Assembly (NCBI GenBank): GCA_903892995.1
Contig: CAITKP010000043.1
Coordinates: 1 to 50,706 of the forward strand
Reading direction: 5' to 3'
Length of the DNA stretch: 50,706 bases
Source of the DNA: an uncultured Campylobacterales bacterium
Lineage (GTDB): Bacteria; Campylobacterota; Campylobacteria; Campylobacterales; Sulfurimonadaceae
Below are positions 19,166-46,800 of the stretch, one piece after another. The translations under genes and the position numbers were made by a program. Position 1 is the first letter of the stretch, and each line of letters opens with the position of its first letter. The notes under the pieces were generated by a model. The model saw nothing but the letters and a program-made list of their open reading frames with translations. It did not search any database and was not told the DNA's origin.

Positions 19166-21598
19166 ATGATAGAAAAATTTTACACAAAGCGAGTCATTAA
19201 GTATCCTCGTGCGACACTTTTTTTGCTTCTTTGTGCAGTTGTTTTTTTAGCGCTTTATATTCCAAGATTACATGTAGATGCTTCTGCTGAGACTTTACTT
19301 CTTGAAAATGATAAAGACCTTCTTTACACCAGAGAAATCAATGAGCGTTATGCAACTCCCGATTTTTTAGTTATCACCTACACCCCAAAAAGTGCGCTTT
19401 TAAGTGATGAGAGTCTTAAAAATCTTAAAAATTTAAAAACAGAGCTTCAGTCGCTTGAATTTGTTGCAAATGTAGTCACAATTTTAGATGTTCCACTCTT
19501 TGAAAGTCCTTCCAAGCCACTCAAAGAACTCATAAAAAATATTCCAACACTCGAATCAAGTGAAACCAATAAAACACTTGCAAAAGAGGAGTTCTTATCC
19601 AATCCAATCTATAAAAACAATCTTGTCTCTAAAGATTTTAAGACCACTGCTATTGTGATAAATTTTAAAGAGGACAAAAAGTTCAAAGCACTTTTAGAGC
19701 AAAAAAATAGGACTAAAACTCTCCAAGATATCAAAGCTTTGAAAGATTATCGTGAAATAAAACGCTCTCGTGAACACCAAAGTATCCAAAAGATTCGACT
19801 GCTTATGCAAAATCACTCAGTAAAAAGCGAGCTTTTTTTAGGCGGTGTTGAGATGATCGCGGATGATATGATAAGTTATGTCAAAAAAGATATTCAAACG
19901 TATGGAGCTATTGTTTTACTTTTATTGCTACTTGTTCTTTATGGAGTTTTTAGAGAGTTAAAATGGGTCATTATTCCTGTTTTAATCTCTGGCGCTTCTA
20001 TTGTTGCATCAACTGGGCTTTTTGGATTAATGGGATTTGAGGTGACTGTTATCTCCTCAAACTTTATTTCACTACAGCTTATTGTGACAATTTCGATGAT
20101 TATCCATCTTATTGTACGCTATCGAGAACTCGTCAATGAGGAGCCGACTTTCTCACAAAATGAGTTGGTACTCACAACCGTGACCTCTATTTTAAAACCC
20201 TCATTTTTTGCCATATTTACAACGATTGCTGGATTTACTTCTTTAATCTTTTCGGGGATTTTGCCAGTTATTATGCTAGGTTGGATGATGAGTATTGCTA
20301 TCACTGTTTCTTTGGTTGTAATCTTTTTAAGTTTTCCAGCGATTGTGGTATTGATGCCTTATCCTCAAAAGAAACCTGCAAGTGTGAAGAGTTTTTCACT
20401 TACAAATTTAGCCTCTCATTTAGCTTTAGAGCATAAAAAAATGGTTGTTGCTTTGAGCTTGCTTATTTTTGCATTGAGTGTTTTTGGAGCCTTACATGTA
20501 AGAGTTGAAAACAGTTTTATTAACTATTTTCAAAAATCAACTGAGATATATAAAGGGATGGCAGTTATTGATAAATCTCTTGGTGGTACAACTCCTCTGG
20601 ATGTGATTATCGATTTTCCAAAAGAGAACTCAAAAAAAGAGCAGATTGTAAAAGCCAATGAAGATTCTCTTGATGAGTTTGAAGATGAATATAATGCGAT
20701 CAAAGATCAAAATCAATACTGGTTTAGTGCAGACAAGATGGAAGTTGTGCGAAGAGTACATGCCTATTTAGAGAGTGTACCAGAGGTAGGAAAGGTGCTT
20801 TCTTTGGGAACTGTGCTAGAAGTGGGTCGCAAACTCAACGACAATAAAGAGCTTGATGATTTTGCTCTTGCAATGCTTTACAATGAACTCCCACAGCAGT
20901 TTCGTCCTATTGTTTTGACACCTTATGTGAATATAGAAGCAAATCAAGTGCGCTTTTCACTGCGCATCGTTGACTCAAATCCTGAGTTAAAAAGAGATGC
21001 ACTTTTAAAGAAAATAAAGTATGATCTTGTGCATAAAATAGGACTCAAAGAGGAGAATGTGCATCTCTCAAATCTAATGGTTTTATATAACAATATGCTC
21101 CAATCTCTTTTTAACTCTCAGATCAAAACACTTGGTTTGATGCTGCTTTTACTCGGCGTTGTATTTTTTATTCTTTTTCGTTCTCTTAAAATTATGATGA
21201 TAGCAATGGCTGTCAATGTGATTCCAATCTCTGTTATATTTGGAGTTATGGGGGTTTTGGATATCCCGCTTGATATGATGACCATCACCATAGCATCTAT
21301 TGCCATAGGTATAGCAGTGGATGACACTATCCACTATTTGCACCGCTATAAAGAGGAGTATCATAAAGATTTTGATGCAGTAAAAGCGATGAAAAGAGCA
21401 CATAAAAGCGTTGGATATGCGATGTATTACACTTCAATTACGATTATGATCGGGTTTTTTGTATTGGTACTCTCTGAGTTTACACCTACAATCTATTTTG
21501 GACTTTTAACTGTTTTGGCGATGCTGAGTGCTCTTATTGCCGATCTTGTTTTGCTTCCAGCTTTACTTCTTATAATGAAGCCCTATAAAAATAGTTAA
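19166..21598 (+). CDS. RND/MMPL-type lipid transporter
   Basis: An 810-residue RND permease in the MMPL/hopanoid-transporter group. It has one N-terminal helix (about 13-31), a large periplasmic loop, a block of helices (about 250-410), a second helix-loop unit (about 430-650) and a C-terminal helix block (about 655-800). The second block has the conserved IAIGIAVDDTIHYLHRYKE. No fusion-protein or TolC gene is adjacent. Sitting in an operon with mlaA and mlaC, it probably moves lipids between MlaC and the inner membrane. The same order occurs in Campylobacter jejuni, as I recall. One TTACATGTAA (20492-20501) encodes ALHVRV. Confidence 0.9.
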   Translation: MIEKFYTKRVIKYPRATLFLLLCAVVFLALYIPRLHVDASAETLLLENDKDLLYTREINERYATPDFLVITYTPKSALLSDESLKNLKNLKTELQSLEFVANVVTILDVPLFESPSKPLKELIKNIPTLESSETNKTLAKEEFLSNPIYKNNLVSKDFKTTAIVINFKEDKKFKALLEQKNRTKTLQDIKALKDYREIKRSREHQSIQKIRLLMQNHSVKSELFLGGVEMIADDMISYVKKDIQTYGAIVLLLLLLVLYGVFRELKWVIIPVLISGASIVASTGLFGLMGFEVTVISSNFISLQLIVTISMIIHLIVRYRELVNEEPTFSQNELVLTTVTSILKPSFFAIFTTIAGFTSLIFSGILPVIMLGWMMSIAITVSLVVIFLSFPAIVVLMPYPQKKPASVKSFSLTNLASHLALEHKKMVVALSLLIFALSVFGALHVRVENSFINYFQKSTEIYKGMAVIDKSLGGTTPLDVIIDFPKENSKKEQIVKANEDSLDEFEDEYNAIKDQNQYWFSADKMEVVRRVHAYLESVPEVGKVLSLGTVLEVGRKLNDNKELDDFALAMLYNELPQQFRPIVLTPYVNIEANQVRFSLRIVDSNPELKRDALLKKIKYDLVHKIGLKEENVHLSNLMVLYNNMLQSLFNSQIKTLGLMLLLLGVVFFILFRSLKIMMIAMAVNVIPISVIFGVMGVLDIPLDMMTITIASIAIGIAVDDTIHYLHRYKEEYHKDFDAVKAMKRAHKSVGYAMYYTSITIMIGFFVLVLSEFTPTIYFGLLTVLAMLSALIADLVLLPALLLIMKPYKNS

Positions 21599-29239: not shown

Positions 29240-29441
29240 GGCCTGAGCGGTTCGACTAAGTACTTATGAGAGGGTTCTACATTTTTATTTAGTGAACTGG
29301 TAGTTGTCCTTGTGTGATGATGATCTCGCTTGAGGTATGTTAACTCTGCCAAGAGACTGTCGCCTAAGAGGATTCTCGGTTTGCTAATTTTTTAGCTTTG
29401 AGAACCAAAGCTATTTGTACGACGGCTGCTTGGGCCTTTTT
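29240..29441 (+). ncRNA. ssrS: Probable 6S RNA
   Basis: The gap between the bioF-like gene and purD holds a structured RNA of about 200 nt with no ORF. GGCCTGAGC at the 5' end pairs fully (two wobbles) with GCTTGGGCC at 29428-29436, and TTTTT follows, so the closing stem also acts as terminator. Near the 3' side, GCTAA/TTAGC and TTCTC/GAGAA form a strong hairpin, and GAACCAAAG resembles the 3' region of other 6S RNAs. 6S RNA binds sigma-70 RNA polymerase in stationary phase. No SRP, RNase P or tmRNA signatures are present. The identity is inferred from structure and context. Confidence 0.7.
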
Positions 29442-43335: not shown

Positions 43336-44321
43336 CGCCAGACTCCTTTTATCTCATAGTTGCAGTGTGTGCATCGATTATCTTTTATCCCCACGATATC
43401 TGCGCTATAACCATCTCTTGCAACGATTTTGGCTTTACATGTAGGACAATAAGTACTGCCATCATTAGCAATATTGCCAAGATAAACATATTTGATGCCA
43501 TATTTTTGAGCTATATCTTTTGCTCTTAGAAGTGTTTGTATTGGCGTGCTTGGTGTTTTGAGCATCTTATAATCTGGATGAAATGCACTCAAATGCCACG
43601 GAATCTCAGTACCAAGTTTTGTCGTTATAAACTCAGCCATCTGCTTCATCTCTTTGTCAGAATCATTGACATCGGGAATGAGAAGCGTGGTGATCTCAAG
43701 CCAGATATCGCTTTTGGCAAACTCAACGAGTGAGTCTAAAACGCCACCCAGATCAGTTTTTAAAACTTTTTGATAATACTCATGTGAGAAGCTTTTTAGA
43801 TCGATATTTGCCGCGTCCACCCAAGAGCGCATATCTTCTAGCACTTCATGTGACTCATATCCGCTGGAGACAAACACGTTTTTTATCCCTTTTTCTTTGG
43901 CTAAAATCCCGATATCTTTGGCGTATGGGTACCAAATAGTCGGTTCATTGTAGGTGTAGCTTATGCTTTGGCAGTTGTGTTTGAGCGCCAAATCTACAAT
44001 CTCATGAGGCATAAGAGTAATGCTCTCATCAACGAGCGAAGTCTGAGAAATAGAGTAGTTTTGACAAAATGGACAGCGAAAATTACAGCCGACTGTTCCA
44101 AGAGAAAGAGAGCGAGAATTTGGCAAGAAATGATAGAGTGGTTTTTTCTCTATAGGATCAGCATGCAAGGCACTTGGATGCCCATAGGTTTTATTTACAA
44201 GAGAAGAATCAATATTATAATTAACACCGCATATACCGTGTCCATCTTTTTTTAAGACACAATAATGCTTGCATAAAAGGCAGACGATATGCTCTTCATC
44301 GCTAAAGCGGGAGTATTGCAT
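43332..44321 (-). CDS. amrS: AmmeMemoRadiSam system radical SAM enzyme
   Basis: A 329-residue radical SAM enzyme. The SAM cluster motif CNFRCPFCQN lies near residue 75. There is also an N-terminal Cys set (CLLCKHYC, then GICGVNY) and a C-terminal zinc-ribbon-like pair of CPTC and CTHC (about 292-325). VSSGYE and DAANIDLKSF fit the family. The reaction is unknown to me. I chose ATG 44321 because GAGGAGA lies 6 nt upstream; an earlier in-frame ATG (44345) lacks a comparable site. It overlaps the AMMECR1 gene end by 20 nt. Confidence 0.93.
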   Translation of the reverse strand: MQYSRFSDEEHIVCLLCKHYCVLKKDGHGICGVNYNIDSSLVNKTYGHPSALHADPIEKKPLYHFLPNSRSLSLGTVGCNFRCPFCQNYSISQTSLVDESITLMPHEIVDLALKHNCQSISYTYNEPTIWYPYAKDIGILAKEKGIKNVFVSSGYESHEVLEDMRSWVDAANIDLKSFSHEYYQKVLKTDLGGVLDSLVEFAKSDIWLEITTLLIPDVNDSDKEMKQMAEFITTKLGTEIPWHLSAFHPDYKMLKTPSTPIQTLLRAKDIAQKYGIKYVYLGNIANDGSTYCPTCKAKIVARDGYSADIVGIKDNRCTHCNYEIKGVWR

Positions 44322-44874
44322 CAAATCTCTCCTCGAGTGAGTCAACTCTATATCTATAGATTGTGGGATGCTCTTTATAGATCAAAGGATCAGCTCCTGC
44401 CTTGTAGCTCAGATGCTCTAAAAATTGCTCAGGTGAGGGAAGTTGTTCCCATACTTGTGGCAAAAATGTGCCTTGATAGTTATTGTGTACAAGAATGAGT
44501 CCATCTACAAAAGGCTCAACTTTTTTAAGAAGATCATTAAAATCCTTATATTCCAAAATTTCTGGAGTACTCAGGAGTGAGACTTCAAGGTCCAGCTGAG
44601 AAAATTCGCTTACATGTAAGGCCCTAAATCGAGGATCATGAAATGCAGCCGAGAGCGCATTGCCTAAAATATCATCAATGAGAGCTCTTCGTGCAAGCAA
44701 AGAACCAATGCAACCTCGAAGTTCATGATCATAATGGAGAGTGACGAAAGTAGCACAACTTGTCGCTAAATAGGGGTATTGGTCAATAAGATTTTCTTTG
44801 TCGATTTTATATTGAGAATCAAAGTGTGCGAGAATTGCTGTTTTTGCAATACGAAGGAGGATTTTGTCTAACAT
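44302..44874 (-). CDS. amrA: AmmeMemoRadiSam system protein A (AMMECR1 family)
   Basis: A 190-residue AMMECR1-domain protein with the family core ATFVTLHYDHELRGCIGSL (about residues 41-59), the six-residue LRGCIG being the most conserved part. ALSAAFHDPRF and ISLLSTPE-like (LEVSLLSTPE) segments follow. AAGGA lies 7 nt before ATG 44874, and TATAAT on the minus strand lies just upstream. It is the first gene of the three. A TTACATGTAA copy (44610-44619) encodes ALHVSE. Confidence 0.92.
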   Translation of the reverse strand: MLDKILLRIAKTAILAHFDSQYKIDKENLIDQYPYLATSCATFVTLHYDHELRGCIGSLLARRALIDDILGNALSAAFHDPRFRALHVSEFSQLDLEVSLLSTPEILEYKDFNDLLKKVEPFVDGLILVHNNYQGTFLPQVWEQLPSPEQFLEHLSYKAGADPLIYKEHPTIYRYRVDSLEERFDAILPL

Positions 44875-44908
44875 CAGTTTTCCTTTAAGCTTAAAAGGTC
44901 GTGTTTGA

Positions 44909-44914
44909 TTATAG
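44909..44914 (-). promoter_or_regulatory. AmmeMemoRadiSam operon promoter, -10 TATAAT
   Basis: A consensus TATAAT on the minus strand about 35 nt before the AMMECR1 start; it predicts a leader of about 28 nt. Confidence 0.6.
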
Positions 44915-44931
44915 TACAAAATTTTATAGAG

Positions 44932-45027
44932 TTTCTTGAGTAGTAGATTTAACTTGTTGGATTGAAAACATCTGCTTTAAATCCCAAAGGAGGAGAGGGA
45001 AAGTTAAAAATACTACTCAAGAAATCC
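44932..45027 (-). ncRNA. Candidate small structured RNA
   Basis: The arms at 44932-44945 and 45011-45024 form a perfect 14-bp stem. After a 2x2 internal loop an inner perfect 8-bp stem follows (44948-44955 with 45001-45008), then a TTGG-ATT/AAT-CCAA stem. On the minus strand a promoter TTGTCC-N17-TATAAA (45062-45034) would start transcription at the foot of the stem. An asymmetric loop there exposes a pyrimidine run, CCCTCTCCTCC, complementary to ribosome binding sites. A 3' U tract is poor on the minus strand; the plus strand has a T7 run after the stem but no good promoter. Strand is therefore uncertain. Confidence 0.45.
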
Positions 45028-45033
45028 TATTTT

Positions 45034-45062
45034 TTTATAGCTTTAGGGGTTTGTAGGGACAA
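45034..45062 (-). promoter_or_regulatory. Promoter-like TTGTCC-N17-TATAAA
   Basis: Both boxes and the 17-nt spacing fit a sigma-70 promoter on the minus strand, aimed at the hairpin RNA. The -35 box lies in a perfect 14-nt palindrome, GGGACAATTGTCCC (45056-45069), which could be an operator. Confidence 0.45.
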
Positions 45063-45071
45063 TTGTCCCTG

Positions 45072-45100
45072 ACACTTTAGGGGCTTTGCTCCTAAAGTGT
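45072..45100 (-). terminator. Hairpin downstream of glnB
   Basis: ACACTTTAGG/CCTAAAGTGT form a perfect 10-bp stem with a 9-nt loop, 8 nt after the glnB stop codon. No U tract follows on either strand, so it may protect the 3' end rather than terminate. Confidence 0.45.
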
Positions 45101-45107
45101 ATAACTA

Positions 45108-45461
<354 letters not shown>

Positions 45462-46769
45462 TTATATGTTTAGGCCACGTTCACCGTGTACAGCTTCATC
45501 AAGACCAAGTGATTCAGTCTCTTCATTCACACGTCCGCCACCTGTAAGTGCAGAAGCTATAAAGTAAACGACTACCGTTCCAATTAAAGTCACTAAACCA
45601 ACAACTGCGATTGACTCAAGTTGAACCATGATCTGTCCCATTCTATCACCTGATGCTTTAAGTGGACCATCCCATAAAAGAGCTTTATCATTTACAGCGA
45701 AGATACCAGTTGCAAGTGCACCCCAAAGACCAGCAAGGAAGTGGATTCCAAATGCATCTAAAGAATCATCATAACCGAGTTTTTTCTTGAGCACTGCTAC
45801 ACCAAAGAAACCGATACCTGAACCAACAACACCGATAATCAAAGCACCGCTTACATCAACAAAACCAGTTGCTGGTGTGATCGCAACAAGACCTGCAACA
45901 ACACCTGAAGCAGCACCTAAAAGTGTAGGTTTTTTGAACATTATCCACTCAATTACCAACCATGTGATCGCTGCTGCTGCAGTTGCGATTGTTGTTGTCA
46001 AAAGAGCTAAACCAGCGATCTCATTTGCACCAAATGCTGATCCTGCATTGAATCCATACCATCCAAACCATAGAAGTGCAGCACCAAGAGCTGTTAACAT
46101 AACACTCATAGGTTTCATAGCAACTTTTAAGTATCCAGAACGTTTTCCAACTAAAAATGCAAGCACTAAACCAGCAAGACCACCATTCATGTGTACAACT
46201 GTTCCACCAGCGAAGTCAAGAGTACCAGCTTTCATCAAGTATCCGCCACCCCAAACCATGTGAGCAATAGGAGCATATACCGCAACTGTCCAAAGTGCTA
46301 CAAAGATAAGCCAAGTAGAAAACTTCATACGCTCAATAATAGAACCACTTGCAATCGCTACTGTAATAGCTGCAAAAGTAGCTTGAAATGCGATAAATAC
46401 AAATTGTGGGTATGCACCAACAGTTGTTAAATCTGTCCATTTGATTCCATCAAGCATAAGGTTTGAAAAACCACCTACAACACTGTTCATATCGCCAGTT
46501 GCTGTACCAAACGCTATTGAGTATCCTGCTACAACCCATGCGATAATCGCAACACTAAAACCTACAAAAACCATTGCAAATGTGTTGAGTAAGTTTTTAG
46601 AGCGAGTCATACCGCCATAAAATAGAGCAAGTCCTGCTGGAGTCATCAATAATACAAGAGCAGTAGATATCATCATCCATGCTGTGTTTCCTGTATCTAA
46701 TTTAGGCGCGTCTGCAGCCAATGCTAAAGACGGTAAAAGTAACGCTATGCTTAAAAGCCATTTTTTCAT
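45462..46769 (-). CDS. amt: Ammonium transporter Amt
   Basis: A 435-residue Amt/Mep channel with a signal peptide (ending LALA) and 11 predicted membrane helices. Family features are TAWMMISTALVLLMTPAGLALFYGG, the Phe gate region, and the twin pore His in VVHMNGGLAG (about 185) and FGIHFLAGLWG (about 330). The C-terminal tail contains GLDEAVHGERG, the usual GlnK-contact segment. I chose ATG 46769 with AAGGA upstream over an in-frame ATG at 46790. Two palindromes lie upstream. Confidence 0.95.
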   Translation of the reverse strand: MKKWLLSIALLLPSLALAADAPKLDTGNTAWMMISTALVLLMTPAGLALFYGGMTRSKNLLNTFAMVFVGFSVAIIAWVVAGYSIAFGTATGDMNSVVGGFSNLMLDGIKWTDLTTVGAYPQFVFIAFQATFAAITVAIASGSIIERMKFSTWLIFVALWTVAVYAPIAHMVWGGGYLMKAGTLDFAGGTVVHMNGGLAGLVLAFLVGKRSGYLKVAMKPMSVMLTALGAALLWFGWYGFNAGSAFGANEIAGLALLTTTIATAAAAITWLVIEWIMFKKPTLLGAASGVVAGLVAITPATGFVDVSGALIIGVVGSGIGFFGVAVLKKKLGYDDSLDAFGIHFLAGLWGALATGIFAVNDKALLWDGPLKASGDRMGQIMVQLESIAVVGLVTLIGTVVVYFIASALTGGGRVNEETESLGLDEAVHGERGLNI

Positions 46770-46784
46770 CTTACATTCCTTTTG

Positions 46785-46800
46785 ACTCAATTGCTTGAGT
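46785..46800. promoter_or_regulatory. Inverted repeat in the amt leader
   Basis: ACTCAA-TTGC-TTGAGT, a perfect 6-bp inverted repeat with a 4-nt centre, 16-31 nt before the amt start and near its ribosome binding site. It could be an operator or a small leader hairpin. Confidence 0.35.

What the first reader, a model, noticed from the sequence alone, without database searches (positions are those of the whole stretch)
44932..45069. Candidate sRNA between glnB and the AmmeMemoRadiSam operon
A nested long hairpin (14 + 8 bp perfect stems) is preceded on the minus strand by TTGTCC-N17-TATAAA, with the predicted start at the foot of the stem. The -35 box lies within the palindrome GGGACAATTGTCCC, a possible operator. 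The exposed loop is CCCTCTCCTCC, the complement of a strong ribosome binding site, as in sRNAs that block translation (compare RepG in Helicobacter). Its position next to glnB-amt suggests a role in nitrogen control.
Basis: partly seen in the sequence, partly recalled or inferred. Interest (0 to 1): 0.65.

Follow-up and report, generated by a model that had tools for sequence, protein, structure and literature searches.

The report
Conserved long RNA hairpin after glnB
Behind the nitrogen-sensor gene glnB of a Campylobacterota bacterium lies a long hairpin, kept almost unchanged in two sister species, that is probably a small regulatory RNA, although the promoter, the operator and the nitrogen role first proposed for it are not supported.

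Summary
The hairpin is real: window 44926-45030, 30-nt arms with 14 + 8 bp perfect stems, the strongest inverted repeat in the window. It folds far better than shuffled sequence (z -7.8, minus strand). It is single-copy. Of 228 genomes of its family it is found only in three species of one genus, always in the glnB-AMMECR1 spacer. It is 88-89% identical to the window's copy although glnB/amt fourfold sites are only 62-64% identical, so it is under constraint. CCCTCTCCTCC is identical in all three and predicted unpaired on the minus strand. This supports a conserved structured RNA co-directional with glnB, most likely an sRNA or 3'UTR-derived sRNA. The closest analogue in design is Campylobacter CJnc190. 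Not supported: the TTGTCC-N17-TATAAA promoter is absent from both relatives that keep the hairpin; the 'operator' palindrome belongs to a dispersed double-hairpin repeat also found behind rplT, nusA and a TonB-receptor gene; no specific conserved target was found; the nitrogen role rests on position alone. Strand, transcript ends and expression are untested. Only three distinct sequences exist, with no two-sided compensatory change, so covariation neither proves nor refutes it.

The parts
44926..45030 (-). Long hairpin, candidate structured/small RNA (about 105 nt)
   Evidence: orthologues in G001 and G007 at the same place
44932..44945 (-). 3' arm of the outer 14-bp perfect stem (partner 45011-45024)
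45011..45024 (-). 5' arm of the outer 14-bp perfect stem
   Evidence: C-G to U-G change in relatives keeps the pair on the minus strand
44948..44955 (-). 3' arm of the inner 8-bp stem (partner 45001-45008)
45001..45008 (-). 5' arm of the inner 8-bp stem
44989..44999 (-). Exposed C/U-rich stretch CCCTCTCCTCC, identical in all three species; presumed pairing site for Shine-Dalgarno-like sequences
   Evidence: 14 of 14 columns identical
44959..44984 (-). Small apical hairpin inside the big loop; lies in the most variable part (24 of 33 columns identical)
45034..45039 (-).
45055..45070 (.).
45072..45100 (-). First hairpin of the dispersed repeat, directly behind the glnB stop codon
45108..45446 (-). 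glnB (PII protein)
45462..46790 (-). amt (ammonium transporter), upstream of glnB
   Evidence: named from sequence
44908..44913 (-). TATAAT of TTGTACTATAAT, the likely promoter of the AMMECR1 - radical SAM - Memo operon, downstream of the hairpin
   Evidence: similar TATAAT in G007, G002, G003, G006
44302..44874 (-). AMMECR1-family gene (ATG start at 44874; the listed TTG start at 44919 lies upstream of the likely promoter)

Best explanation
The hairpin is a clade-specific structured RNA made on the minus strand, in the same direction as glnB. It is either the 3' part of the glnB transcript or a short transcript of its own. I infer that its 27-bp interrupted stem is cut by RNase III, or simply protects the RNA, and that this leaves the C/U-rich stretch CCCUCUCCUCC free. 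That stretch would pair with G-rich Shine-Dalgarno sequences and block translation, without Hfq. Shown here: the inverted repeat, its conservation at one locus in three species, the invariant and predicted-unpaired C/U stretch, no detectable Hfq and a detectable RNase III in this genome. Inferred: transcription, strand, processing, targets.
For: Minus-strand fold z -7.8; z -7.2, -5.2, -5.5 on the minus strand against -5.6, -3.3, -4.0 on the plus strand in the three species. Hairpin identity to the window's copy is 94-95 of 107 columns against 62-64% at fourfold sites of glnB and amt (Fisher p about 1e-6 for window vs G001). G001 vs G007 is 106 of 107, against 79-86% at fourfold sites. The flanks between the hairpin and its neighbours vary and carry indels. 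The C/U stretch is 14 of 14 identical, while the apical part is 24 of 33. All four one-sided pair changes keep a standard pair on the minus strand: minus 108 of 110 cells pair, plus 100 of 110. The likely promoter TTGTACTATAAT downstream makes it unlikely to be the leader of the next operon. Hfq not found, RNase III found. Precedent for the design: CJnc190 (PMC8687705).
Against: No transcript data. Only three distinct sequences, two of them nearly identical, and no two-sided compensatory change. No conserved promoter upstream and no U-tract behind the hairpin on the minus strand in any of the three. The strand comparison leans on a structure derived from the minus strand, and one pair (columns 11/107) favours the plus strand. 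No specific target: close matches to GGAGGAGAGGG are not more frequent than in the reversed-pattern control. The best local candidate related to the locus, the radical SAM gene's ribosome site (-18.3 kcal/mol), pairs weakly in G001 (-8.8) and just as well in G002, which has no hairpin.
Confidence: 0.5

Rival explanations
1. It is the 3' end of the glnB (amt-glnB) mRNA: a long hairpin that stops read-through or protects the transcript end from exonucleases, without any trans-acting role.
For: It lies co-directionally behind glnB, after two further hairpins. Sister species without it have another hairpin behind glnB (GGCACAAA-TTTGTGCC followed by ACTCCTTTT). No own promoter is conserved.
Against: No U-tract behind it on the minus strand. 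A pure end-hairpin needs no conserved sequence, yet the arms (56-57 of 60 columns) and the unpaired C/U stretch (14 of 14) are kept.
Confidence: 0.22
2. The RNA is made on the plus strand (or on both, as in CJnc180/190): the hairpin plus the following T7 would be an sRNA with an intrinsic terminator and a G-rich loop AAAGGAGGAGAGGG.
For: CCTATTTTTTT directly behind the stem on the plus strand in the window; TACAAT shortly before the hairpin foot on the plus strand in G007; plus-strand MFE is nearly as low.
Against: The T-tract is absent in G001 and G007 (CACTTTTC, CACTATTC); TACAAT is absent in the other two; more broken pairs on the plus strand.
Confidence: 0.12
3. It is a non-coding inverted-repeat element (MITE-like) that inserted behind glnB in an ancestor of these species, with no function.
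For: Absent from G002, G003 and G006, which have a shorter spacer at the same locus; long terminal inverted repeats; next to another dispersed repeat.
Against: Single copy in all three genomes and none elsewhere in 228 family genomes; only short chance-level pieces in 399 order genomes; no target-site duplication visible in G001 or G007; conserved far better than fourfold sites.
Confidence: 0.12

Closest known systems
CJnc190 (Campylobacter jejuni; PMC8687705)
   Same: Long intramolecular duplex around a C/U-rich loop that could pair with a G-rich ribosome site; same phylum; genome with RNase III.
   Different: Different locus (between Cj1650 and map, opposite CJnc180); no sequence relationship tested; here processing, expression and target are unknown.
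RepG (Helicobacter pylori; PMC8295292)
   Same: C/U-rich loop; here too in a genome without detectable Hfq (absence of Hfq in H. pylori is own knowledge).
   Different: RepG is a stand-alone gene whose product is the mature sRNA and targets a G-repeat in the tlpB leader (PMC8295292; PMC8687705). Here there is no conserved own promoter and no such target, and the C/U stretch is closed by a much longer stem (own knowledge of RepG's structure).
3'UTR-derived sRNA of the glutamine synthetase mRNA in Enterobacteriaceae (PMC9731577)
   Same: Possible release of an sRNA from the 3' part of a nitrogen-control mRNA.
   Different: Different gene (glnA against glnB) and phylum; no processing evidence here. 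Only the start of the abstract was consulted.
REP-type palindromic repeats (for the neighbouring 45037-45105 element, not for the hairpin)
   Same: Dispersed paired palindromes outside genes, variable stems, conserved short flanks.
   Different: No Y1 (RAYT-type) transposase found in this genome.

Membership tests
CJnc190-like RNase III-processed sRNA | Long intramolecular duplex around the mature sRNA | tested here: met
   By prediction:
[quoted passage not shown]
   Loop present and invariant; no conserved specific target
CJnc190-like RNase III-processed sRNA | RNase III cleavage of the precursor | not testable with these tools
   RNase III gene present
RepG-type stand-alone sRNA | Own conserved promoter with start at the 5' end of the RNA | tested here: not met
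   TATAAA absent in G001 and G007; no conserved gnTAnaAT upstream
RepG-type stand-alone sRNA | Intrinsic terminator at the 3' end (own knowledge) | tested here: not met
   No U-tract behind the hairpin on the minus strand
Any Rfam 15 family | Covariance-model match above gathering score | tested here: not met
   best is a microRNA model at 24.7 bits against a cut-off of 88, i.e. chance
MITE / mobile inverted repeat | Several copies at different loci | tested here: not met
Leader (riboswitch/attenuator) of the AMMECR1 operon | Lies between the operon's promoter and its first gene | tested here: inconclusive
   Likely promoter TTGTACTATAAT lies downstream of the hairpin and a similar one is present in G007, G002, G003, G006; transcription starts not mapped
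REP element (neighbouring palindrome) | Associated Y1 transposase (RAYT) in the genome | tested here: not met
REP element (neighbouring palindrome) | Dispersed non-coding copies | tested here: met

The most novel reading that the evidence does not exclude
A glnB-3'UTR-derived, Hfq-independent sRNA, released by RNase III from a long duplex, carries an anti-Shine-Dalgarno C/U loop and couples PII/ammonium status to translation of a set of mRNAs in one clade of Campylobacterota.
Probability: 0.15. Interest if true: 0.6.

Novelty: new member of a known kind. Interest (0 to 1): 0.38.

Why it matters
Regulatory RNAs outside Campylobacter and Helicobacter are little described in the Campylobacterota; one paper in the searched library mentions Sulfurimonas, small RNA and transcription start site together. 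If expressed, this would extend to an environmental clade the pattern of C/U-loop RNAs acting without Hfq, and would suggest a link between the PII locus and an sRNA there.

Tried and rejected
Promoter TTGTCC-N17-TATAAA: rejected, not conserved and part of a repeat. Operator: rejected as specific, it is a dispersed repeat. Mobile repeat: single copy. Rfam: nothing. Weak covariance hits in G093 (E 0.065; across a gene start) and L016 (E 0.085): judged chance. Short BLAST matches in the order: 21-44 nt pieces at E of about 1e-4 per genome over 399 genomes, judged chance; contexts not opened. Viral contigs (two patterns) and plasmids: no match. Small proteins: only 23-36 aa TTG frames without conservation evidence. 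Target search with the complement of the loop: no enrichment over the reversed control; the one 1-mismatch site lies upstream of no evident gene start. Specific targeting of the radical SAM gene's ribosome site: not conserved.

Full report
The observation. The inverted repeat at 44926-45030 is real and stands out: 30-nt arms, 87% complementary, with nested perfect stems of 14 and 8 bp. Apart from one short self-overlapping palindrome it is the only inverted repeat of 20 nt or more within 200 nt in the window. A perfect 14-bp repeat alone is not extraordinary (mean 0.16 per simulated window), but the folding energy is: -35.7 kcal/mol, z -7.8 on the minus strand; -35.1, z -4.4 on the plus strand. 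The TTGTCC-N17-TATAAA arrangement, the palindrome and the exposed CCCTCTCCTCC are all present as described.

Where it occurs. By BLAST and by a covariance model built from the three known copies, the hairpin is single-copy. It is found only in this genome and in G001 and G007, two species of the same genus, always between glnB and the AMMECR1 gene and in the same orientation. The public record L011 (uncultured Campylobacterales MAG) has a copy with the same score as G001's and the same spacer. Three other species of the genus (G002, G003, G006) have a shorter spacer at the same locus, with another small hairpin behind glnB and a TATATAAT-type promoter for the next operon. In the remaining two held genomes of the genus (G004, G005) no glnB was seen next to AMMECR1.

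Constraint. Between the window and G001 or G007 the hairpin is 94-95 of 107 columns identical, whereas fourfold sites are 62-64% identical in glnB and amt and 31-35% in AMMECR1. Between G001 and G007 it is 106 of 107, against 79-86% at fourfold sites of amt and glnB. The sequence between hairpin and glnB, and between hairpin and AMMECR1, differs by indels and substitutions. Within the hairpin the C/U-rich stretch is unchanged (14 of 14), the arms nearly so, and the apical part varies (24 of 33). Purifying selection on both the arms and the loop is the simplest reading; local recombination between species cannot be excluded.

Strand. Four pairs differ between species, each on one side only, and each keeps a standard pair when read as minus-strand RNA (the fourth, 34/84, is hidden by an alignment gap and is seen). 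Counting all cells, 108 of 110 pair on the minus strand and 100 of 110 on the plus strand. One pair (11/107) points the other way, and the structure was derived from the minus strand, so this is a leaning, not proof. There is no two-sided compensatory change, so covariation is untestable with three sequences. On the plus strand the window has T7 directly behind the stem, but the relatives do not.

Promoter, operator, terminator. In Campylobacter and Helicobacter the sigma-70 signal is gnTAnaAT without a -35 box (PMC3847290). The proposed -10, GCTATAAA, lacks the last T, is shared with the repeat copy behind rplT, and is missing in G001 and G007. The palindrome is the second hairpin of a double-hairpin repeat, roughly GTTAYACACT-[stem-loop]-GGCAGGGACANNTGTCCCTACAACCCCCTAAAGC. 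Behind stop codons it occurs at glnB, rplT, a TonB-receptor-like gene and nusA in this genome (gene names read from the translations), and related copies occur in other genomes of the genus, in G005 as a tandem array. No Y1 transposase was found. The palindrome is therefore not evidence for an operator of this RNA. No U-tract follows the hairpin on the minus strand. The likely promoter of the AMMECR1 operon (TTGTACTATAAT) lies between the hairpin and that operon, so the hairpin is probably not its leader.

Function. The genome has no detectable Hfq and has RNase III. The nearest precedent for the architecture is CJnc190 of C. jejuni, cut by RNase III from a long intramolecular duplex, whose C/U-rich loop blocks a G-rich ribosome site (PMC8687705). 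I found no specific target. Sites complementary to the loop are not enriched in the genome (7/9 against 12/10 in the reversed control). The strongest local candidates are ordinary purine-rich ribosome sites; pairing with the radical SAM gene's site is not conserved and is equally strong in a species without the hairpin. The nitrogen link rests on position only.

Verdict. A conserved, clade-specific structured RNA candidate, most likely an sRNA or glnB-3'UTR RNA on the minus strand (0.5). Nothing in it departs from known kinds of regulatory RNA.

Noticed in passing
45037-45105; L005, L008, L003 around 1501; G005:C11:4033-4258: A dispersed double-hairpin repeat (CACT-stem-AGTGGCAGGGACANNTGTCCCTACAACCCCCTAAAGC) behind glnB, rplT, a TonB-receptor-like gene and nusA, with stems that vary in sequence but stay paired; relatives across the genus, tandem in G005. 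No Y1 transposase in this genome.
   Followed up: partly
29300-29435: purD RNA motif (RF01069, 66.7 bits) on the plus strand.
   Followed up: no
20984-21118: A second perfect inverted repeat of at least 15 bp with a spacing of about 100 nt.
   Followed up: no
L093 about 1470-1490, L092 about 1468-1490: In G001 and G007 an additional small hairpin (CCCGCAT/ATGCGGG in G007) stands directly before the long hairpin, in place of the window's TATAAAAAAA.
   Followed up: partly
44874-44919: The listed TTG start of the AMMECR1 ORF (44919) lies upstream of the likely promoter TATAAT (44908-44913); the ATG at 44874 is the likelier start.
   Followed up: partly
L108-L113: Six of the eight genomes of the genus have a second, weak match (30-36% over about 100 aa) to the AMMECR1 protein elsewhere, possibly a paralogue.
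   Followed up: no
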